Below are positions 1 through 38,570 of a DNA stretch of 38,570 nucleotides, in pieces. Within the stretch, counting starts at the first letter, position 1, and each line of letters opens with the position of its first letter. Below the pieces are notes generated by a model. The model saw only the letters and a list, made by a program, of their open reading frames with translations. It did not search any database and was not told the DNA's origin. Location of the stretch: assembly GCA_031271295.1 (NCBI GenBank), contig JAISVZ010000086.1:1-38570 (forward strand). The letters are read 5' to 3'. The position numbers were made by a program, and so were the translations under genes. The DNA comes from Clostridiales bacterium. GTDB taxonomy: Bacteria; Bacillota; Clostridia; Lachnospirales; WQUN01.

Positions 1-155
1 ACTTGCTAAAGGGCGCTTATCTTGCAAGGATGCTGTAGTTACGCTTCCCAAGAATATTTGGCAATGTATAAATTCACGTAACCCTTTTGCTTCCTGCAAA
101 GAACACACCCGATTATTTATGCGCTTCTTTCGCTGCCTGCAAAAAACACGCTGCC

Positions 156-396
156 GGGCTTCGGCGCGGGTTATATTGCACAGCATGATTGTGCCGCGCG
201 GCGGGGAAACAATTTTCGCCGTCAAAAAAATAATCACTGCGATACACTAATGGCGAAAATTGGTTCACCAGAGCAGCGAGAAGAATATTTTTGAGCGCAC
301 CGCAAAAATAGCCCCTTTACTAACTTTGGTGCGCTCAAAAATGTTCTGAAGCGTCAGGCGGCACATTGCTGGGCGATATAATTTGCGCCGAAGCCC
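156..396 (-). repeat. Structured core of repeat copy A
   Basis: Bounded by GGGCTTCGGCG (156-166) and its exact reverse complement CGCCGAAGCCC (386-396). Inside are the two side hairpins: GGCGAAAATTG paired with CAATTTTCGCC, and TTTTTGAGCGC paired with GCGCTCAAAAA. The hairpin-B loop is the attagtgtatcgcag type shared with the 8050-9524 element. Confidence 0.75.
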
Positions 397-512
397 TCCT
401 GCAACCCCCTGCAACAGCCACTCAAAGTGCGGGCAATACTTACGCCAAAGCCTCTGCAACCCTTGCCGGATAGCTGCGCGAAGAACGGGTAAAGATAACG
501 GCTTGCTATTTA

Positions 513-540
513 GAATGATGACAAAAAAATGTCATCATTC
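513..540. repeat. Perfect 11-bp inverted repeat, A6 loop
   Basis: GAATGATGACA, six A, TGTCATCATTC. The same palindrome occurs at 37799-37826 in the opposite half copy. It is absent from the two complete elements. It could act as a hairpin in RNA or as a binding site. Confidence 0.7.
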
Positions 541-634
541 CGGAAAAAGAATAGCGCCACCTTTTTATTCAAAGGCGGCGCTTTGCGTTTACTTAACGCC
601 TTACGTCATTTAAAACACCGCGCTAACGGACGCA

Positions 635-3127: not shown

Positions 3128-3157
3128 ATTGTATCACAACAAAGCGTAAAATTACAA
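3128..3157 (-). promoter_or_regulatory. Promoter of the metI-patB pair
   Basis: Minus-strand TTGTAA (-35, 3152-3157), 18-bp spacer, TACAAT (-10, 3128-3133). The start codon lies about 100 bases downstream. I see no SAM riboswitch or T-box in the leader. Confidence 0.55.
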
Positions 3158-3417
3158 TCCCTATTTAACAGATATGATAAATCGCAATCGCCGCGGCGTG
3201 TAGCTAAAAATTTTTGGTATTTTCGCCCGGAGGTTGCGTGTCGCCTTTGAATAATAAGCTGACATAATTTCATTTCCGCATATAGCAATTTGGATGTGTG
3301 CCGCGGAGAACTAAACGCTTATATTACCCATACTTTTGCGTGGAATTCGGCAAGGGTACAGGAAGCTTCGGCGCAGAAGTTACCCGCACTTGCATGGCTG
3401 TCCGGCAAGGGTATAGA

Positions 3418-3662
3418 GGGGCTTCGGCGCAAATTATATCGCACAGCAATGTGCCACCTAACGCTTCAGAACATTTTTGAGCGCTCCAAGTTTATAAAGA
3501 GTTCTATGTATTGCAGTGCGCTCAAAAATATTCTTCTCGCTGCTCTGGTGAACCAATTTTCGCCAATTAGTTATGCGCAGAGATTATGTATTGCGGCGGC
3601 GAAAATTGTTTCCCCGCCGCGTGGCACAATCATGCTGTGCGATATAATTCACGCCGAAGCCC
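3418..3662 (+). repeat. Structured core of repeat arm B
   Basis: GGGCTTCGGCG at 3418-3428 pairs with CGCCGAAGCCC at 3652-3662. The basal stem continues through ATTATATCGCACAGCA and GTGCCAC. Side hairpins are TTTTTGAGCGC/GCGCTCAAAAA and CCAATTTTCGCC/GGCGAAAATTG, with an aattagttatgcgcag-type loop. Confidence 0.75.
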
Positions 3663-3956
3663 GGCAGCGTGTTCTTTGCAGGCGGCAAAAGGAGTGCAGA
3701 AGCCATCGGGCGTTTTCTTTATAGGCGGCAAAAAGCGTGCGCGAAACTACATATCTACGCAAACCTTAGCGCTTTATGGCTTAGGAACGCGTTATTATTG
3801 CCCAGTATATTAGAGGTACAGTACAGTAACAGCTGTTACTGCTCCACTAATTAAATTTCTCCGCTTAATAAGTGCTATCGTTACCGAAATACTAATTTAT
3901 TTACAGCGCTTGGTAATTTTAACCGTTAACACAATTACAATGGGCACAATTATGCC

Positions 3957-4004
3957 GCCATGATAGTAGTACGGCAAATAATAATTACGCCATGATAGTA
4001 GTAC
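3957..4004 (+). repeat. 16-bp direct repeat in the element centre
   Basis: GCCATGATAGTAGTAC at 3957-3972 and again at 3989-4004, 32 bases apart. It lies in the unique AT-rich centre between arms B and C. Confidence 0.8.
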
Positions 4005-4169
4005 CACCGCCAAATAATTGTTCCGCAATAATAATTTACCGCCAAAATAATCGCTCCGCCATATGCACTATTCGCAAGCCTATAGGGACGCTATAACAGT
4101 GTTTCCCCGAATACCCGGCAACGTACAAATTTCCGCACACCTTTTATCGCCTGCAAAGAACATGCTGAT

Positions 4170-4411
4170 GGCTTCGGCGTGAATTATATTGCACAGCATG
4201 ATTGTGCCACGCGGCGGGGAAACAATTTTCGCCGTCGCAATACTAATCTCTGTGCATAACTAATTGGCGAAAATTGGTTCACCAGAGCAGCGAGAAGAAT
4301 ATTTTTGAGCGCACTGCAATACATAGAACCCTTTATAAACTTGGTGCGCTCAAAAATGTTCTGAAGCGTTAGGTGGCACATTGCTGTGCGATATAATTTG
4401 CGCCGAAGCCC
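4170..4411 (-). repeat. Structured core of repeat arm C
   Basis: Reverse-complement counterpart of 3418-3662. It begins GGCTTCGGCG at 4170 and ends CGCCGAAGCCC near 4411, with the same two side hairpins. The leading G of the 11-base stem is T here, giving one weaker outer base pair. Confidence 0.75.
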
Positions 4412-4652
4412 CCCTATACCCCTTGCCGGACAGCCACGCGAGTGCGGGTAACTTCTGCGCCGAAGCCCCTGTAACCCCTGCTGAATTTGGCGCAAAAGCG
4501 CGGGTAGTTTTCAATGTTTATTTCTCCACAGCGTACATCCAAATTGCTATCTACGGAAAATGAAAATGACACCTTATTATTCAAAGGCGATACACAACCT
4601 CGGATCAAAAATATCAATAATTTTTATCTGCATCCCATCGCCGCAAATACGT

Positions 4653-4681
4653 TTGCTTAACATGCTCCGCTGTGATAGAAT
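4653..4681 (+). promoter_or_regulatory. Likely promoter of the MATE gene
   Basis: TTGCTT (4653-4658), 17-bp spacer, TAGAAT (4676-4681), about 90 bases before the start. A second TATAAT at 4728-4733 is a possible alternative -10 but has a poor -35. Confidence 0.45.
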
Positions 4682-4770
4682 AACAAAACTTGAAATTTGA
4701 AATATTCAGTTGCCTGCAAATAACCTCTATAATATTCAAGGCAATAGTTTATGAAAGCGGGGAAATTAAG

Positions 4771-7928: not shown

Positions 7929-8207
7929 GGCAAGTGGTTCTCCTTCCTGAAATTTTGTAAGCTTACACCTATACAGACACCGCAAAATTGAAAAGGATAG
8001 GGAATTTTGCAAGAATAATAACCTGTTTTTTGGCTTTGCGCAATGAAGGTTGCTACTGTTCACACTCCCGCCGAAGACGCTACTTCGATAATTTCTACAG
8101 CTTTGAATAATAAGCTGTCATTTTCATTTTCCGCAGCATACAATTTGGCGGTTCTTACCGGAGTAATTTACCCTCGCTTTTGTAGGCTGTCCGGCAGGGG
8201 TATAGGG

Positions 8208-8449
8208 GGGCTTCGGCGCAGATTATATCGCACAGCAATGTGCCACCTAACGCTTCAGAACATTTTTGAACGCTCCAAGTTTATAAAGGGTTCTATGTAT
8301 TGCAGTGCGCTCAAAAATATTCTTCTCGCTGCTCTGGGGAACCAATTTTCGCCATTAGTGTATCGCAGAGATTATTTTTTTGACGGCGAAAATTGTTTCC
8401 CCGCCGCGTGGCACAATCATACTGTGCGATATAATTCACGCCGAAGCCC
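8208..8449 (+). repeat. Structured core of repeat arm D
   Basis: Basal stem: GGGCTTCGGCG 8208-8218 with 8439-8449 (11 bp), ATTATATCGCACAG 8222-8235 with 8422-8435 (14 bp), GTGCCAC 8240-8246 with 8408-8414 (7 bp). Side hairpin A: 8263-8273 with 8307-8317, with one mismatch from the A at 8270. Side hairpin B: GGGGAACCAATTTTCGCC 8336-8353 with 8385-8402 (17 of 18 pair). Confidence 0.8.
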
Positions 8450-8909
8450 GCCAGCATGTTCTTTGCAGGCAGCAGGGCTTGTGCGCAAAGCCCAGCGTAT
8501 TCTTTGCAGGAAGCAAGGGTGTGTGCAAAGCCCCATGAATACGCATATTGTAGATACCCCGCGTATTCACAAGTTGAAGCAGTGCAGAATTAGCGAACGC
8601 GTTATTATTTACCAACGTATTTGCGCCGCTATGCGTTTGCTACGTGCGGCAATATTTACGCCGCTATGCACACTTGCCTCGTAAGGCATATTCACGCCGC
8701 AGGAATAATTATACCGCCAAAATATACTAATGCAGATATCCGGAGAAATGCGAATTGCCGCTCTTGGAATTTCTTGATGCGCCGCCCACAATATTCGCGC
8801 GCATGGTCGGAACAATAAAATTTGCGGTAAATGTTTCTTTTCGCGCGTATAACCGCACTGCCATAATAACGCTGTACACAAATTTGCAAGGCTGCTGTAA
8901 TTACGAATA

Positions 8910-9012
8910 CCCAAATATTCGGCAGCGTACAAATTCCGCACACACCCAAATATTTGCCAACGTGCAATTTCCGCTCACCCAAATATTCGGCAACGTACAA
9001 ATTCCGCACACA
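8910..9012 (-). repeat. Three tandem ~34-bp units in arm E
   Basis: Units begin CCCAAATATTCGGCAGCG near 8910, CCCAAATATTTGCCAACG near 8945 and CCCAAATATTCGGCAACG near 8978. Each continues with a TACAAATTCCGCACAC-like stretch. Single diverged units occur at the same place in copies A, C and F. There is no spacer sequence, so this is not CRISPR. Confidence 0.8.
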
Positions 9013-9040
9013 CTCTGCCGCCTGCAAAGAACACGCTGGC

Positions 9041-9282
9041 GGGCTTCGGCGTGAATTATATCGCACAGCATGATTGTGCCACGCGGCGGGGAAACAATTT
9101 TCGCCGTCAAAAAGATAATCTCTGCGATACACTAATGGCGAAAATTGGTTCCCCAGAGCAGCGAGAAGAATATTTTTGAGCGCACTGCAATACATAGAAC
9201 CCTTTATAAACTTGGAGCGCTCAAAAATGTTCTGAAGCGTTAGGTGGCACATTGCTGTGCGATATAATTTGCGCCGAAGCCC
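9041..9282 (-). repeat. Structured core of repeat arm E
   Basis: GGGCTTCGGCG 9041-9051 pairs with CGCCGAAGCCC 9272-9282. It is nearly identical to arm D (8208-8449) in reverse complement, and the hairpin-A stem TTTTTGAGCGC/GCGCTCAAAAA is perfect here. Confidence 0.8.
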
Positions 9283-9547
9283 CCTGTACCCCTGCCGGAT
9301 AGCCATGCGAGTGCGGGTAATTTCTGCGCCGAAGCCCCCTATACCCCTGCTGAATTTGGCGCAAAAGTGTGGGTAATAAAAACAAACAGTATTTTGCGGT
9401 GTTTAGTTCTCCGCGGCGTACGCCCAAATTGCTATATTTCGGAAATAAAATTATGCCGCCTTATTATTCAAAGGCGTAGTAATTTATAGAAGAAACTTCT
9501 TCGGCGAAGTGTGAACAGTAACTGACGGTTAAAGTATGGATTTCAAT

Positions 9548-17806: not shown

Positions 17807-17852
17807 TCTGTTACTCCCCCCCCTTTTACAAAAACGCAAAGTTTCCGCTTTA

Positions 17853-17953
17853 TACTAATTCCAATTTAAAAAGTTGAAGCCAAGCCACTAAAATCGCCGT
17901 GATTTTCGGCGTTTTTGGGGCACCGGTTTCAAACTTTTTAACAGAATTAGTAT
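17853..17953 (+). mobile_element. MITE-like hairpin element, copy 1
   Basis: 101 bp. Ends are TACTAATTCCAATTTAAAAA and the complement of TACTAATTCTGTTAAAAA. The centre is the hairpin CGCCGTGATTTTCGGCG followed by TTTTT. It is inserted in the sugar operon between the ThDP gene and the SDR, and its T-tract points against the direction of transcription. Copies are at 29567-29668 and 33592-33708. Confidence 0.8.
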
Positions 17954-28222: not shown

Positions 28223-29566
28223 ATGAAAAACACAAACAGTATAAACGCAAAGCTCCACAGCGAAACTGCGGCAAAAGAAAGCGCCGCTTACATGAGCGCC
28301 AAAACAATTGCCGCGGAAACCTTAGGCTGCAAGGTTAACGCCTGCGACACTCAGGCAATGCTTGAATTATTTATAAAGGAAGGCTACCGAGCCGTGGATT
28401 TTTCACAGCCGGCGGATGTATATTTAATTAACACATGCTCCGTTACGAATATCGGAGATAAAAAATCCCGCCAAATGATACGGCGGGCTAAGAAGCAAAA
28501 CCCCGCCGCAATTGTTGTGGCGGCAGGCTGTTATGCGCAAACTAACCCCGCCGAAGCTTCCGCAACCGGCGCGGACATTTTAATAGGCAATACCGAACGC
28601 GCAAACGCGGTATATTACGTTAAAGAATTTGAACGCGAAAAAACGGCGCGAAAAACCGTTTCGCAAATTACGGACGAACGTATTTTTGAGGAACTGCAAA
28701 TTGAAAATTTGAACGGGCATACAAGGGGCTACGTTAAAATTCAGGACGGCTGCGATAATTTTTGTTCTTACTGCATTGTGCCGTACGCAAGGGGACGGGC
28801 GCGAAGCAGGAAAATTCAGGACTGCGTTTCGCAGTGCAAACGGCTTGCGGAAAACGGCTTTACAGAAATTGTATTATCCGGTATTAATATTGCCTCTTAC
28901 GGCAAGGATTTAGAAAACGAAACCCTAACCGGTTTAATTGCGGCCATTCACGATATACCGGGAATTAAACGCATAAGGTTTAGCTCCGCAGACCCAAGGC
29001 TTATGACAAACAGTTTTATCGGGTTTTTAAAAACTCTTCCGAAAATATGCGATTTTTTTCACTTATCCCTGCAAAGCGGGTGCGATAAAACGCTGCTTCG
29101 CATGAACCGTAAGTACGATACCGCCCTTTACGCGAGTACCGCCGAATCCATAAGGAGTTTTTACCCGGACGCGGCAATTACAACGGATATAATAGTTGGC
29201 TTTCCCGGCGAAACCGAAAAGGATTTTCGCGACAGTTACGATTTTTGCGGCAAAATGCGTTTTGCTAAAATTCATGTGTTCCCGTTTTCCGCAAAAAAGG
29301 GTACCGCCGCATGTTCAATGGAAGGGCAAGTACCGTATGCCGAAAAGAAAAAACGCGAAGAGGCGATGCTTATTTTGGCGCAAAACCTACGCGGCGGATT
29401 TTTGGATGAAAACGCGGGAAAAATAAAAAGTGTCCTCTTTGAAAAGGAGGAAAACGGATTTTTAAGCGGATATACCGAAAACTATATATCGGTTAAAACG
29501 GAGAATTGCGCGGCCAAGGTAAATACCGTTAAAAATGTACTCCTTAAAAGACATATGATAAGCTAA
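28223..29566 (+). CDS. mtaB: tRNA t6A37 methylthiotransferase MtaB
   Basis: Radical-SAM methylthiotransferase of 447 residues that turns t6A37 of tRNA into ms2t6A. N-terminal cluster cysteines are in TLGCKVNACDTQ, NTCSVTN and AGCYAQTNP. The radical-SAM motif is DGCDNFCSYCIVPYARG (CxxxCxxC). The C-terminus is TRAM-like (NGFLSGYTENYISVK). KVNACDTQ separates it from MiaB/RimO. The N-terminus is ~33 residues longer than usual. An internal ATG (MSAKTIAAETLGCK) could be the true start, but the ATG at 28223 has AGAGGAAAACCC upstream. The stop codon TAA runs directly into a MITE-like hairpin. Confidence 0.92.
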   Translation: MKNTNSINAKLHSETAAKESAAYMSAKTIAAETLGCKVNACDTQAMLELFIKEGYRAVDFSQPADVYLINTCSVTNIGDKKSRQMIRRAKKQNPAAIVVAAGCYAQTNPAEASATGADILIGNTERANAVYYVKEFEREKTARKTVSQITDERIFEELQIENLNGHTRGYVKIQDGCDNFCSYCIVPYARGRARSRKIQDCVSQCKRLAENGFTEIVLSGINIASYGKDLENETLTGLIAAIHDIPGIKRIRFSSADPRLMTNSFIGFLKTLPKICDFFHLSLQSGCDKTLLRMNRKYDTALYASTAESIRSFYPDAAITTDIIVGFPGETEKDFRDSYDFCGKMRFAKIHVFPFSAKKGTAACSMEGQVPYAEKKKREEAMLILAQNLRGGFLDENAGKIKSVLFEKEENGFLSGYTENYISVKTENCAAKVNTVKNVLLKRHMIS

Positions 29567-29668
29567 TACTAATTCCAATTTAAAAAGATGAAGCCAAGCC
29601 TCCAAAATCGCCGTGATCTTCGGCGTTTTTGGAGCGCCGGTTTCAAACTTTTTAAACAGAATTAGTAT
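29567..29668 (+). mobile_element. MITE-like hairpin element, copy 2
   Basis: 102 bp starting at the base after the mtaB stop. It has the same ends as copy 1, and the central hairpin CGCCGTGATCTTCGGCG then TTTTT is in the sense direction of mtaB, as a terminator would be. The flank CCAAAA/TTTTGG extends the stem. Confidence 0.82.
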
Positions 29669-33591: not shown

Positions 33592-33708
33592 ATACTAATT
33601 CTGTTTAAAAAGTTTGAAACCGTCGCCCCAAAAACGCCGAAAATCACGGCGATTTTGGGGGCTTGGCTTGGCTTGGCTTGGCTTCAACTTTTTAAATTGG
33701 AATCAGTA
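33592..33708 (-). mobile_element. MITE-like hairpin element, copy 3, with expanded pentamer
   Basis: 117 bp, reading on the minus strand from the manA stop (TGA then TACTGATTCC). The hairpin CGCCGTGATTTTCGGCG plus TTTTT is in the sense direction of manA. It is 15 bp longer than the other copies because GGCTT (AAGCC on the coding strand) is repeated near 33661-33684. Confidence 0.82.
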
Positions 33709-36750: not shown

Positions 36751-36780
36751 AGGATACGCGAATACCCGCGCGGCAACTTT

Positions 36781-36873
36781 CCTGCAAGGGTTGCGGGAGG
36801 CTTCGGCGCAAAAGCTGCCCGCGCCTTACGCAGTAATCCTGCAAATGCGCGGGAGGCTTCGGCGCAAAGCGCG
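36781..36873 (+). repeat. Two tandem units of the GGCTTCGGCGCA repeat
   Basis: GCGGGAGGCTTCGGCGCAAA occurs at 36793-36812 and 36849-36868, 56 bases apart, each after CCTGCAA. The same ~55-bp unit is tandemly repeated in arms B, C and E of the large elements, but here there is no core. It occupies the gap between the hydrolase and the acetyltransferase. Confidence 0.75.
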
Positions 36874-37618: not shown

Positions 37619-37798
37619 TCTTTTCTCCTTTCCTATTTGAAGTAAAACATAATTTAGTATATCATGGCATTGTTTGGATGAAAACATCAACCTGATGGGC
37701 GGCATAAAGTAAGCGGCAACTGTTACTGTTCACATTCTATCTAAAGAATAATTATATTGCAGCGACTTAGAGTACTAAGGCGGGAATTTCTTTTTCCG

Positions 37799-37826
37799 GA
37801 ATGATGACATTTTTTTGTCATCATTC
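37799..37826. repeat. Perfect 11-bp inverted repeat, T6 loop
   Basis: Same palindrome as 513-540, read on the other strand: GAATGATGACA, six T, TGTCATCATTC. Confidence 0.7.
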
Positions 37827-37944
37827 TAAATAGCAAGCTGTTATCTTTACCCGTTCTTCGCGTAGCTATCCGGCAAGGGTTGCAGAGGCTTTGGCGTATG
37901 TATTACCCGCGATTTTTGCGGCTGTTCTATAAGGGGTTGCAGGA

Positions 37945-38189
37945 GGGCTTCGGCGCAAATTATATCGCCCAGCAATGTGCCACCTGACGCTTCAGAACAT
38001 TTTTGAGCGCACCAAGTTAATAAAGAGTTTTATGTTAACGCAGTGCGCTCAAAAATATTCGTCTCGCTGCTCTGGTGAACCAATTTTCGCCAATTAGTTA
38101 TGCGCAGAGATGGCGTATTGCGGCGGCGAAAATTGTTTCCCCGCCGCGTGGCACAATCATGCTGTTCGATATAACCCGCGCCGAAGCCC
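37945..38189 (+). repeat. Structured core of repeat copy F
   Basis: GGGCTTCGGCG 37945-37955 pairs with CGCCGAAGCCC 38179-38189. The two side hairpins are retained. The middle basal stem has two mismatches (ATCGCCCAG against CTGTTCGAT). The hairpin-B loop is of the aattagttatgcgcag type. Confidence 0.75.
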
Positions 38190-38542
38190 GGCAGCATGTT
38201 CTTTACAGGCGGCGAAAGGAGCGCGTAAATACTCGGGTGTGTTCTTTGCAGGAAGCAAAAGGTTTACGAGAATTTATACATTGCCAAATATTCTTGGGAA
38301 GCGTAACTACAGCATCCTTGCAGATAAGTGAATGGCGTAATTATGTCCAAGCGATTAATTTTCTAACGTTGCCTTTATTAATACGCGTAAAGTGTTATAG
38401 CGCGGTAAGAATATTATTTCGGTTCTGACGTTGGTAGATATAAATCAAAGTCGCAAAATAAGCGCCCTTTAGCAAGTAACAAGTACCGCAAACACTGAAC
38501 AATATAAATATTTAGCGCTGCTTCTATTTGAGCTCATGGAAT

Positions 38543-38570
38543 AATTAGTGACATATATATGTCACTAATT
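38543..38570. repeat. 28-bp perfect palindrome at the window end
   Basis: A self-complementary sequence centred at 38556/38557 with the form ATTAG-TGACA-TATATA-TGTCA-CTAAT. It shares TGACA-N6-TGTCA with the palindromes at 513-540 and 37799-37826. The window stops at its last base. Confidence 0.75.

What the first reader, a model, noticed from the sequence alone, without database searches (positions are those of the whole stretch)
3208..4622. Family of giant (~1.4 kb) non-coding palindromic elements
Two intergenic regions (3208-4622 and 8050-9524) are each a long inverted repeat with ~600-bp arms and a different AT-rich centre. Two further half copies lie at the window ends. They carry conserved outer motifs (GCCTTTGAATAATAAG; TACTGTTCACAC), tandem GGCTTCGGCG units and a structured core, but no transposase and no credible gene. 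Typical MITEs are far smaller. The end GTAAGCGGCAACTG at 37709 starts with GTAA, as IS66-family ends do, so a transposon derivative is possible but untested.
Basis: partly seen in the sequence, partly recalled or inferred. Interest (0 to 1): 0.8.

Follow-up and report, generated by a model that had tools for sequence, protein, structure and literature searches.

The report
Giant foldback transposons with folded core
The window holds members of a large family of gene-free jumping DNA elements, unusually big and mirror-symmetric, whose arms each carry a 245-base segment that has been kept foldable on one DNA strand only, which suggests that a folded RNA or single-stranded DNA matters for how these elements spread.

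Summary
Window 3195-4636 and 8052-9522 are two complete, gene-free elements of 1442 and 1471 bp. Each is an inverted repeat with ~440-520-bp arms, 88% alike, around a 429- or 513-bp centre. Half copies sit at both contig ends. They belong to a family with ~50 full cores in this genome. They are mobile elements. Two kinds of terminal inverted repeat occur: type A GTTACTGTTCACAC and type B GGGTGCAGCTAAAAATTATTGG. Both complete window copies carry 8-bp target duplications (ATCGCCGC 8/8; TGAAGGTT/TGACGGTT 7/8), and so do further copies. The type A end matches, 14 of 14 bases, the outer ends of a 1775-bp IS4-family transposase element in another genome of the order, so the parent is probably IS4-family, not IS66. 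The suspected 'IS66-like' end at 37709 is host DNA; the real end is 37722. The unusual part is the 245-nt core, one per arm in opposite orientation. It folds into a long branched stem, and changes on the inner branches of the copy tree keep pairing on one strand only (20 keep, 0 A·C, 2 mismatches), while single-copy changes are random. The fold was therefore selected while the element spread, as RNA or ssDNA. No homologue of the core was found elsewhere.

The parts
3195..4636 (.). Element 1 (1442 bp), type B ends, two inverted cores
   Evidence: 8-bp target duplication on both sides, arms 445 of 504 aligned bases alike
3187..3194 (.). Target duplication ATCGCCGC, left of element 1
   Evidence: 8 of 8 with 4637-4644
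4637..4644 (.). Target duplication ATCGCCGC, right of element 1
3195..3217 (+). Type B terminal inverted repeat (GGCGTGTAGCTAAAAATTTTTGG)
   Evidence: 33 genome matches against 4 for the reversed-pattern control
4614..4636 (-). Type B terminal inverted repeat (GGGATGCAGATAAAAATTATTGA)
3418..3662 (-). Structured core, left arm of element 1; folding strand is minus (points outward)
4170..4412 (+). Structured core, right arm of element 1; folding strand is plus (points outward)
3702..4130 (.). Centre of element 1, 41.0% GC, unlike the centre of element 2
8052..9522 (.). Element 2 (1471 bp), type A ends, two inverted cores
   Evidence: target duplication 7 of 8; arms 384 of 436 aligned bases alike
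8044..8051 (.). Target duplication TGAAGGTT, left of element 2
9523..9530 (.). Target duplication TGACGGTT, right of element 2
8052..8065 (+). Type A terminal inverted repeat GCTACTGTTCACAC
   Evidence: 72 genome matches at up to 1 mismatch, 0 in the reversed-pattern control
9509..9522 (-). Type A terminal inverted repeat GTTACTGTTCACAC
8207..8449 (-). Structured core, left arm of element 2
9041..9283 (+). Structured core, right arm of element 2
1..577 (.). Half copy cut by the left contig end; its outer end is degraded
156..396 (+). Structured core of the left half copy
37722..38570 (.). Half copy cut by the right contig end; type A end at 37722-37735 (GTTACTGTTCACAT)
37945..38189 (-). Structured core of the right half copy
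36777..36866 (.). Small relic holding only the outer-arm tandem unit (..GGCTTCGGCGCAAA..) between two convergent genes
   Evidence: direct-repeat family D12; sequence

Best explanation
These are non-autonomous DNA transposons of a foldback-like, giant-MITE build. Shown: short terminal inverted repeats, 8-bp target duplications, many copies with different flanking genes, no gene inside, two inverted arms with tandem sub-repeats and changing centres. Inferred: a DDE transposase acting in trans recognises the ends and moves them by cut-and-paste. For type A ends the best candidate is an IS4-family transposase; the enzyme for type B ends is unknown. Shown: each arm carries a 245-nt core whose branched fold has been preserved on one strand, in the lineages that spread, and not after insertion. 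Inferred: a folded single strand, either an RNA transcribed outward or a single-stranded DNA stage, helps the element spread, for example as a binding site for the transposase or a host factor. That last step is the least certain.
For: Type A end: 72 genome matches against 0 for the reversed control; five type A pairs with 7 or 8 of 8 bases duplicated: window 8052-9522, L054, L117, L118, L121 (P about 4e-14 for five of 16 candidate pairs listed, calculated). Type B: window element 1 8 of 8, L064 7 of 8. Exact type A ends on both sides of a 1775-bp element with a 449-aa open frame, NCBIfam IS4_1 144 bits against a cut-off of 115. A second such element, 55% alike in protein, has GTTACTGTTCAC on both sides. 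A relict of that IS end (GTTACTGTTCACAC..CAATGTCATTAAGTTAAGG) lies in this genome at C116. Unrelated 133-147-bp MITEs with these ends and exact 8-bp duplications occur in other genomes of the order. Fold: 99.3% of pair cells are standard pairs against 37-49% when slid. Stems vary 2.7%, junctions 3.5%, apical loops 16-22%. Changes shared by several copies: 14 keep pairing, 0 A·C, 1 other; single-copy changes: 7 keep, 10 A·C, 11 other (Fisher P 1.8e-5). Inner tree branches: 20 keep, 0 A·C, 2 mismatch. Loop mutation rates show no strand bias that would mimic this: 41.9 against 41.8 per 1000.
Against: No intact autonomous partner with these ends was found in this genome, which is a 220-contig, 94% complete assembly. 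The two IS4-type elements themselves lack an 8-bp duplication, and known IS4-subgroup ends (-AATR..) would begin 15-18 bases further in. About half of the plausible type A pairs show no target duplication. Transcription of the core is not shown, and no convincing promoter was found. Classical two-sided covariation is weak: one pair only, and 31 of 500 shuffles reach the covariation score. Some shuffling of arms between copies makes tree-based counts approximate.
Confidence: 0.75

Rival explanations
1. Ordinary dead MITEs: the core is a palindrome inherited from one master copy and has no role of its own.
For: MITEs often fold stably (review PMC10969869); single-copy changes look neutral.
Against: Shared and inner-branch changes keep pairing on one strand only, 20 to 0, and junctions are as conserved as stems while apical loops vary freely. 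A passive palindrome would not do this.
Confidence: 0.2
2. IS66-family (ISBst12 clade) derivatives.
For: ISBst12-clade elements have GTAACTATTCAG-type ends and exact 8-bp duplications; an IS66 transposase with GTAACTATTCAGTAG ends lies in this genome on C162.
Against: The elements start GTTACTG, not GTAA, and match ISBst12-type ends at only 10 of 11 bases; IS4-transposase elements match 14 of 14.
Confidence: 0.15
3. The core is a host-useful RNA gene or mRNA leader, copied and dispersed because it helps the cell.
For: Strong, strand-specific fold pointing outward to neighbouring genes.
Against: Single-copy changes are random with respect to pairing; neighbouring genes and their orientations vary; no homologue in any other genome searched.
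Confidence: 0.1
4. REPIN-like single-strand mobility: the pair of inverted cores is the moving unit and a single-strand (HUH/RAYT-type) enzyme moves it.
For: Cores occur as inverted doublets with fixed orientation, and strand-specific selection fits ssDNA; REPINs also behave as doublets with conserved hairpins (PMC3116915).
Against: Terminal inverted repeats with 8-bp duplications mark DDE-type insertion. RAYT genes were not looked for.
Confidence: 0.1

Closest known systems
Foldback and Galileo elements of eukaryotes
   Same: Long inverted arms with tandem sub-repeats, variable centres, many gene-free copies; in Galileo the arm repeats bind the transposase (PMC3688188).
   Different: Bacterial; no sequence relation shown; arms carry a folded core under strand-specific selection.
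Bacterial MITEs, e.g. BrickBuilt of Porphyromonas gingivalis
   Same: Non-coding, intergenic, terminal repeats, restricted to one species; BrickBuilt also holds a tandem repeat (PMC4596501).
   Different: About 1.4 kb with two inverted 245-nt cores and two alternative kinds of end.
IS4-family insertion sequences (1775-bp element L215)
   Same: Exact GTTACTGTTCACAC outer ends; target duplications in the IS4 family are 7-13 bp (PMC2266710), here 8.
   Different: No transposase; no interior similarity seen; the IS has an extra CAATGTCATTTACTTAAG just inside the end.
IS66 family, ISBst12 clade
   Same: 8-bp duplication; end alike at 10 of 11 bases.
   Different: Starts GTTA, not GTAA; no transposase.
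REPINs
   Same: Two inverted structured repeats as a unit; fold kept by selection on the mobile unit (PMC3116915).
   Different: Far larger; has terminal repeats and 8-bp duplications.

Membership tests
Bacterial MITE (non-autonomous DNA transposon) | Terminal inverted repeats | tested here: met
   Type A 72 genome matches against 0 control; type B 33 against 4
Bacterial MITE (non-autonomous DNA transposon) | Target-site duplication | tested here: met
   8 bp at both window copies and at five further elements
Bacterial MITE (non-autonomous DNA transposon) | No coding capacity | tested here: met
   The two longest ORFs in element 2 match nothing in Pfam
Bacterial MITE (non-autonomous DNA transposon) | Small size, usually a few hundred bp | tested here: not met
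   1442 and 1471 bp, though 91-464-bp relatives with the same ends exist
IS4-family derivative | Ends shared with an IS4-transposase element | tested here: met
   14 of 14 at both ends of L215; GTTACTGTTCAC at both ends of L219
IS4-family derivative | Partner transposase carries the IS4 signature and the YREK motif | tested here: met
   NF033592 144 bits over cut-off 115; Y-2-R-3-E-6-K readable in YHLRWSQETAYRDLK
IS4-family derivative | Target duplication of 7-13 bp | tested here: met
   8 bp for the elements; not seen at the IS copies themselves
IS4-family derivative | Intact autonomous copy in the same genome | tested here: inconclusive
IS66 family | Ends begin GTAA | tested here: not met
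   Ends are GTTACTG; the GTAA at 37709 lies outside the element
IS66 family | 8-bp target duplication | tested here: met
Foldback element | Long inverted arms built of sub-repeats with variable centres | tested here: met
Foldback element | Common descent with eukaryotic foldback elements | not tested
   No such comparison was made; resemblance is in form only
Known RNA family (Rfam 15) | Match at the curated gathering score | tested here: not met
   Only a tRNA in the window; sub-threshold hits on 3150-4700 are microRNA models
REPIN | Partner RAYT (Y1) transposase | not tested
   -

The most novel reading that the evidence does not exclude
The 245-nt core is a new kind of mobile-element RNA or ssDNA: a folded single strand that a DDE-transposase element needs in cis to spread, present as an inverted pair in every complete element.
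Probability: 0.3. Interest if true: 0.85.

Novelty: new variant of a known kind. Interest (0 to 1): 0.58.

Why it matters
Cut-and-paste transposons are thought to need only double-stranded ends. A gene-free element family whose only strongly conserved interior is a fold kept on one strand, and kept in the lineages that multiply but not in resident copies, suggests an unrecognised single-stranded step, or a structural passenger, in bacterial transposition. It is also a clear bacterial counterpart in form of eukaryotic foldback elements. With about fifty copies in one genome it allows statistical and experimental tests.

Tried and rejected
IS66 as parent was first favoured from the 8-bp duplications and GTAACTATTCAG ends of ISBst12-clade relatives, then downgraded when IS4-transposase elements with exact ends turned up. 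The 20-base core pattern in about 85,000 genomes gave one hit (Floccifex porci), and the covariance model finds nothing there. Viral contigs, plasmids and phages: none. Covariance-model hits in three family genomes are unrelated hairpins; the best (40.7 bits) scores on a long stem only. Order (246 genomes) and class (391 genomes): none. The outer hairpin CCTTTGAATAATAAG was tested for covariation and fails. Recent arm duplication or general gene conversion between arms: only the two window elements have mutual best-matching arms, the other eight pairs do not. Ribosomal or Rfam RNAs: none. Promoters inside the core: matches near the shuffle expectation.

Full report
What is there. The window is a whole contig (C207) of a 3.69-Mb, 220-contig assembly. 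Two intergenic stretches are complete elements: 3195-4636 (1442 bp) and 8052-9522 (1471 bp). Half copies are cut by the two contig ends (1-577 and 37722-38570). Arms are about 507 bp and 437-521 bp, with 445 of 504 and 384 of 436 aligned bases alike. The centres, 429 and 513 bp, differ from each other. Only the first centre is A+T-richer than the window. Elsewhere in the genome the same core occurs about 50 times in full, plus fragments. At complete loci the two cores always lie in the same relative orientation, left copy plus and right copy minus. Many contigs end inside the element (contig lengths), which is expected of a high-copy repeat. Flanking genes differ from place to place and show no fixed orientation, so these are not assembly artefacts.

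Anatomy. From the outside in: a terminal inverted repeat, a small palindrome around CCTTTGAATAATAAG, a stretch with tandem units that end in GGCTTCGGCG, the 245-nt core, then inner tandem units (GCATGTTCTTTGCAGG..) and a centre that differs between elements. Two types of end occur on the same interior. Type A is GTTACTGTTCACAC: 72 matches in the genome at one mismatch or less, 0 for the reversed control pattern. Type B is GGGTGCAGCTAAAAATTATTGG: 33 matches against 4 for the control, allowing three mismatches.

Mobility. Five type A pairs in this genome are flanked by 8-bp duplications with 7 or 8 of 8 bases equal: window 8052-9522 (TGAAGGTT/TGACGGTT), L054 (AGTAGAAC), L117 (GAAAAATA/GAAAAACA), L118 (GATTTTTT, a 91-bp mini-element) and L121 (GTTCATAG). 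By chance one pair in 2600 would do so. Type B pairs do the same: window element 1 (ATCGCCGC, 8 of 8) and L064 (CCCTTGTA/CCCTCGTA, 7 of 8). The other plausible type A pairs, about half, show none, as expected if old or recombined. In other genomes of the order the type A end also frames unrelated MITEs of 133-147 bp with exact 8-bp duplications (ACAGAAGT, GGTTTCTG, GTGAAGAT, ATCTGACA, TTCTAAAC).

Parent. ISBst12-clade IS66 elements from plasmids of Planococcus, Geobacillus (ISGka4), Anoxybacillus and Candidatus Chlorohelix carry ends such as GTAACTATTCAG and exact 8-bp duplications, and one such transposase with ends GTAACTATTCAGTAG is in this genome on C162. That matches type A at 10 of 11 bases. 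A scan of 392 genomes of the order then turned up a 1775-bp element in genome G714 with the exact 14-base type A end on both sides and a 449-aa open frame that NCBIfam calls an IS4-family transposase (144 bits, cut-off 115). The YREK signature of the IS4 family (PMC2266710) can be read in it. A second IS4-type element in G082, 55% alike in protein, has GTTACTGTTCAC on both sides. Inside the end both carry CAATGTCATTTACTTAAG, and this genome keeps a relict of that arrangement on C116. An IS4-type transposase is therefore the better parent for type A. Two cautions: the IS copies themselves show no 8-bp duplication, and the published IS4-subgroup ends would start at the inner CAATG. The enzyme for type B ends is unknown.

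The core. Forty-eight cores were aligned on the strand that points outward. The consensus fold is a long stem with a three-way branch and two arms. On that strand the fold of window copy 1 has z = -12.7, on the other -7.85. Stems vary by 2.7%, junctions and internal loops by 3.5%, the two apical loops by 16-22%. Nearly all stem changes are one-sided between Watson-Crick and G·U, which on the opposite strand would be A·C. I used this as a strand test. Changes shared by two or more copies: 14 keep pairing on this strand, none makes A·C, one is another mismatch. Single-copy changes: 7 keep, 10 make A·C, 11 other (Fisher P = 1.8e-5). Counted on a tree, inner branches: 20 keep, 0 A·C, 2 mismatch; terminal branches: 44, 10 and 12. 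Mutation rates in the free loops show no strand bias that would mimic this (C>T plus A>G 41.9, G>A plus T>C 41.8 per 1000). Cruciform extrusion of double-stranded DNA would not prefer one strand. Reading: while the element spread, a single strand had to fold; once a copy is resident, nothing holds the fold. Limits: two-sided covariation is present at one pair only and the tool's shuffle control is not passed strongly (31 of 500). Transcription is not shown, and promoter-like matches are near the shuffle expectation.

Distribution. The core is absent from 37 other genomes of the family by DNA; by covariance model nothing convincing was found in the family (the best hit is an unrelated hairpin), nor in 246 genomes of the order or 391 of the class. 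It is also absent from plasmids, phages and viral contigs. The single hit of a 20-base pattern in about 85,000 species genomes is not a core. The genus has no other held genome. The family is thus known only here, as MITEs often are. It is not in Rfam.

Mechanism and rank. Best supported: a foldback-like, giant non-autonomous transposon, mobilised in trans by a DDE transposase (IS4-type for type A ends), whose arms carry a fold needed as RNA or ssDNA for efficient spread. The transposon part is shown by end sequences and target duplications; the fold's selection is shown statistically; what the fold does is inference. In form it resembles eukaryotic foldback elements, where arm repeats bind the transposase (Galileo, PMC3688188), and REPINs, where an inverted doublet is the mobile unit (PMC3116915); it is not filed as a member of either. 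Known kind, new variant.

Noticed in passing
window 17852-17941, 29566-29655, 33592-33681: A second, unrelated palindromic repeat family (about 110 bp, ends ATACTAATTC..GAATTAGTAT) with three copies in the window.
   Followed up: no
window 36777-36866: Two outer-arm tandem units (GGCTTCGGCGCAAA) alone between two convergent genes, without core or ends.
   Followed up: no
L058, L121, L035 and L054 centres: A shared centre module with the perfect palindrome TTAGTGACATATATATGTCACTAA; other centres share AAATAGAATGATAGAATGATAGAAAT. Centres seem to be exchanged as modules.
   Followed up: partly
window 37808-37826, 513-531; L057, L059, L062: A mini-palindrome GAATGATGACATTTTTTTGTCATCATTC sits at the same place in the outer arm of some copies only.
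   Followed up: no
L038 (C110): A type B end lies about 30-50 bp inside a type A end, as if one kind of element had inserted into or replaced the end of the other.
   Followed up: no
G702, G720, G750, G666 (L193, L212, L199, L194): Different short MITE families with the same GTTACTGTTCACAC ends in other genomes of the order.
   Followed up: partly
L116 (C162) 1376-2828: A complete single-ORF IS66 (ISBst12-type) element without a target duplication, on a 3-kb contig.
   Followed up: partly
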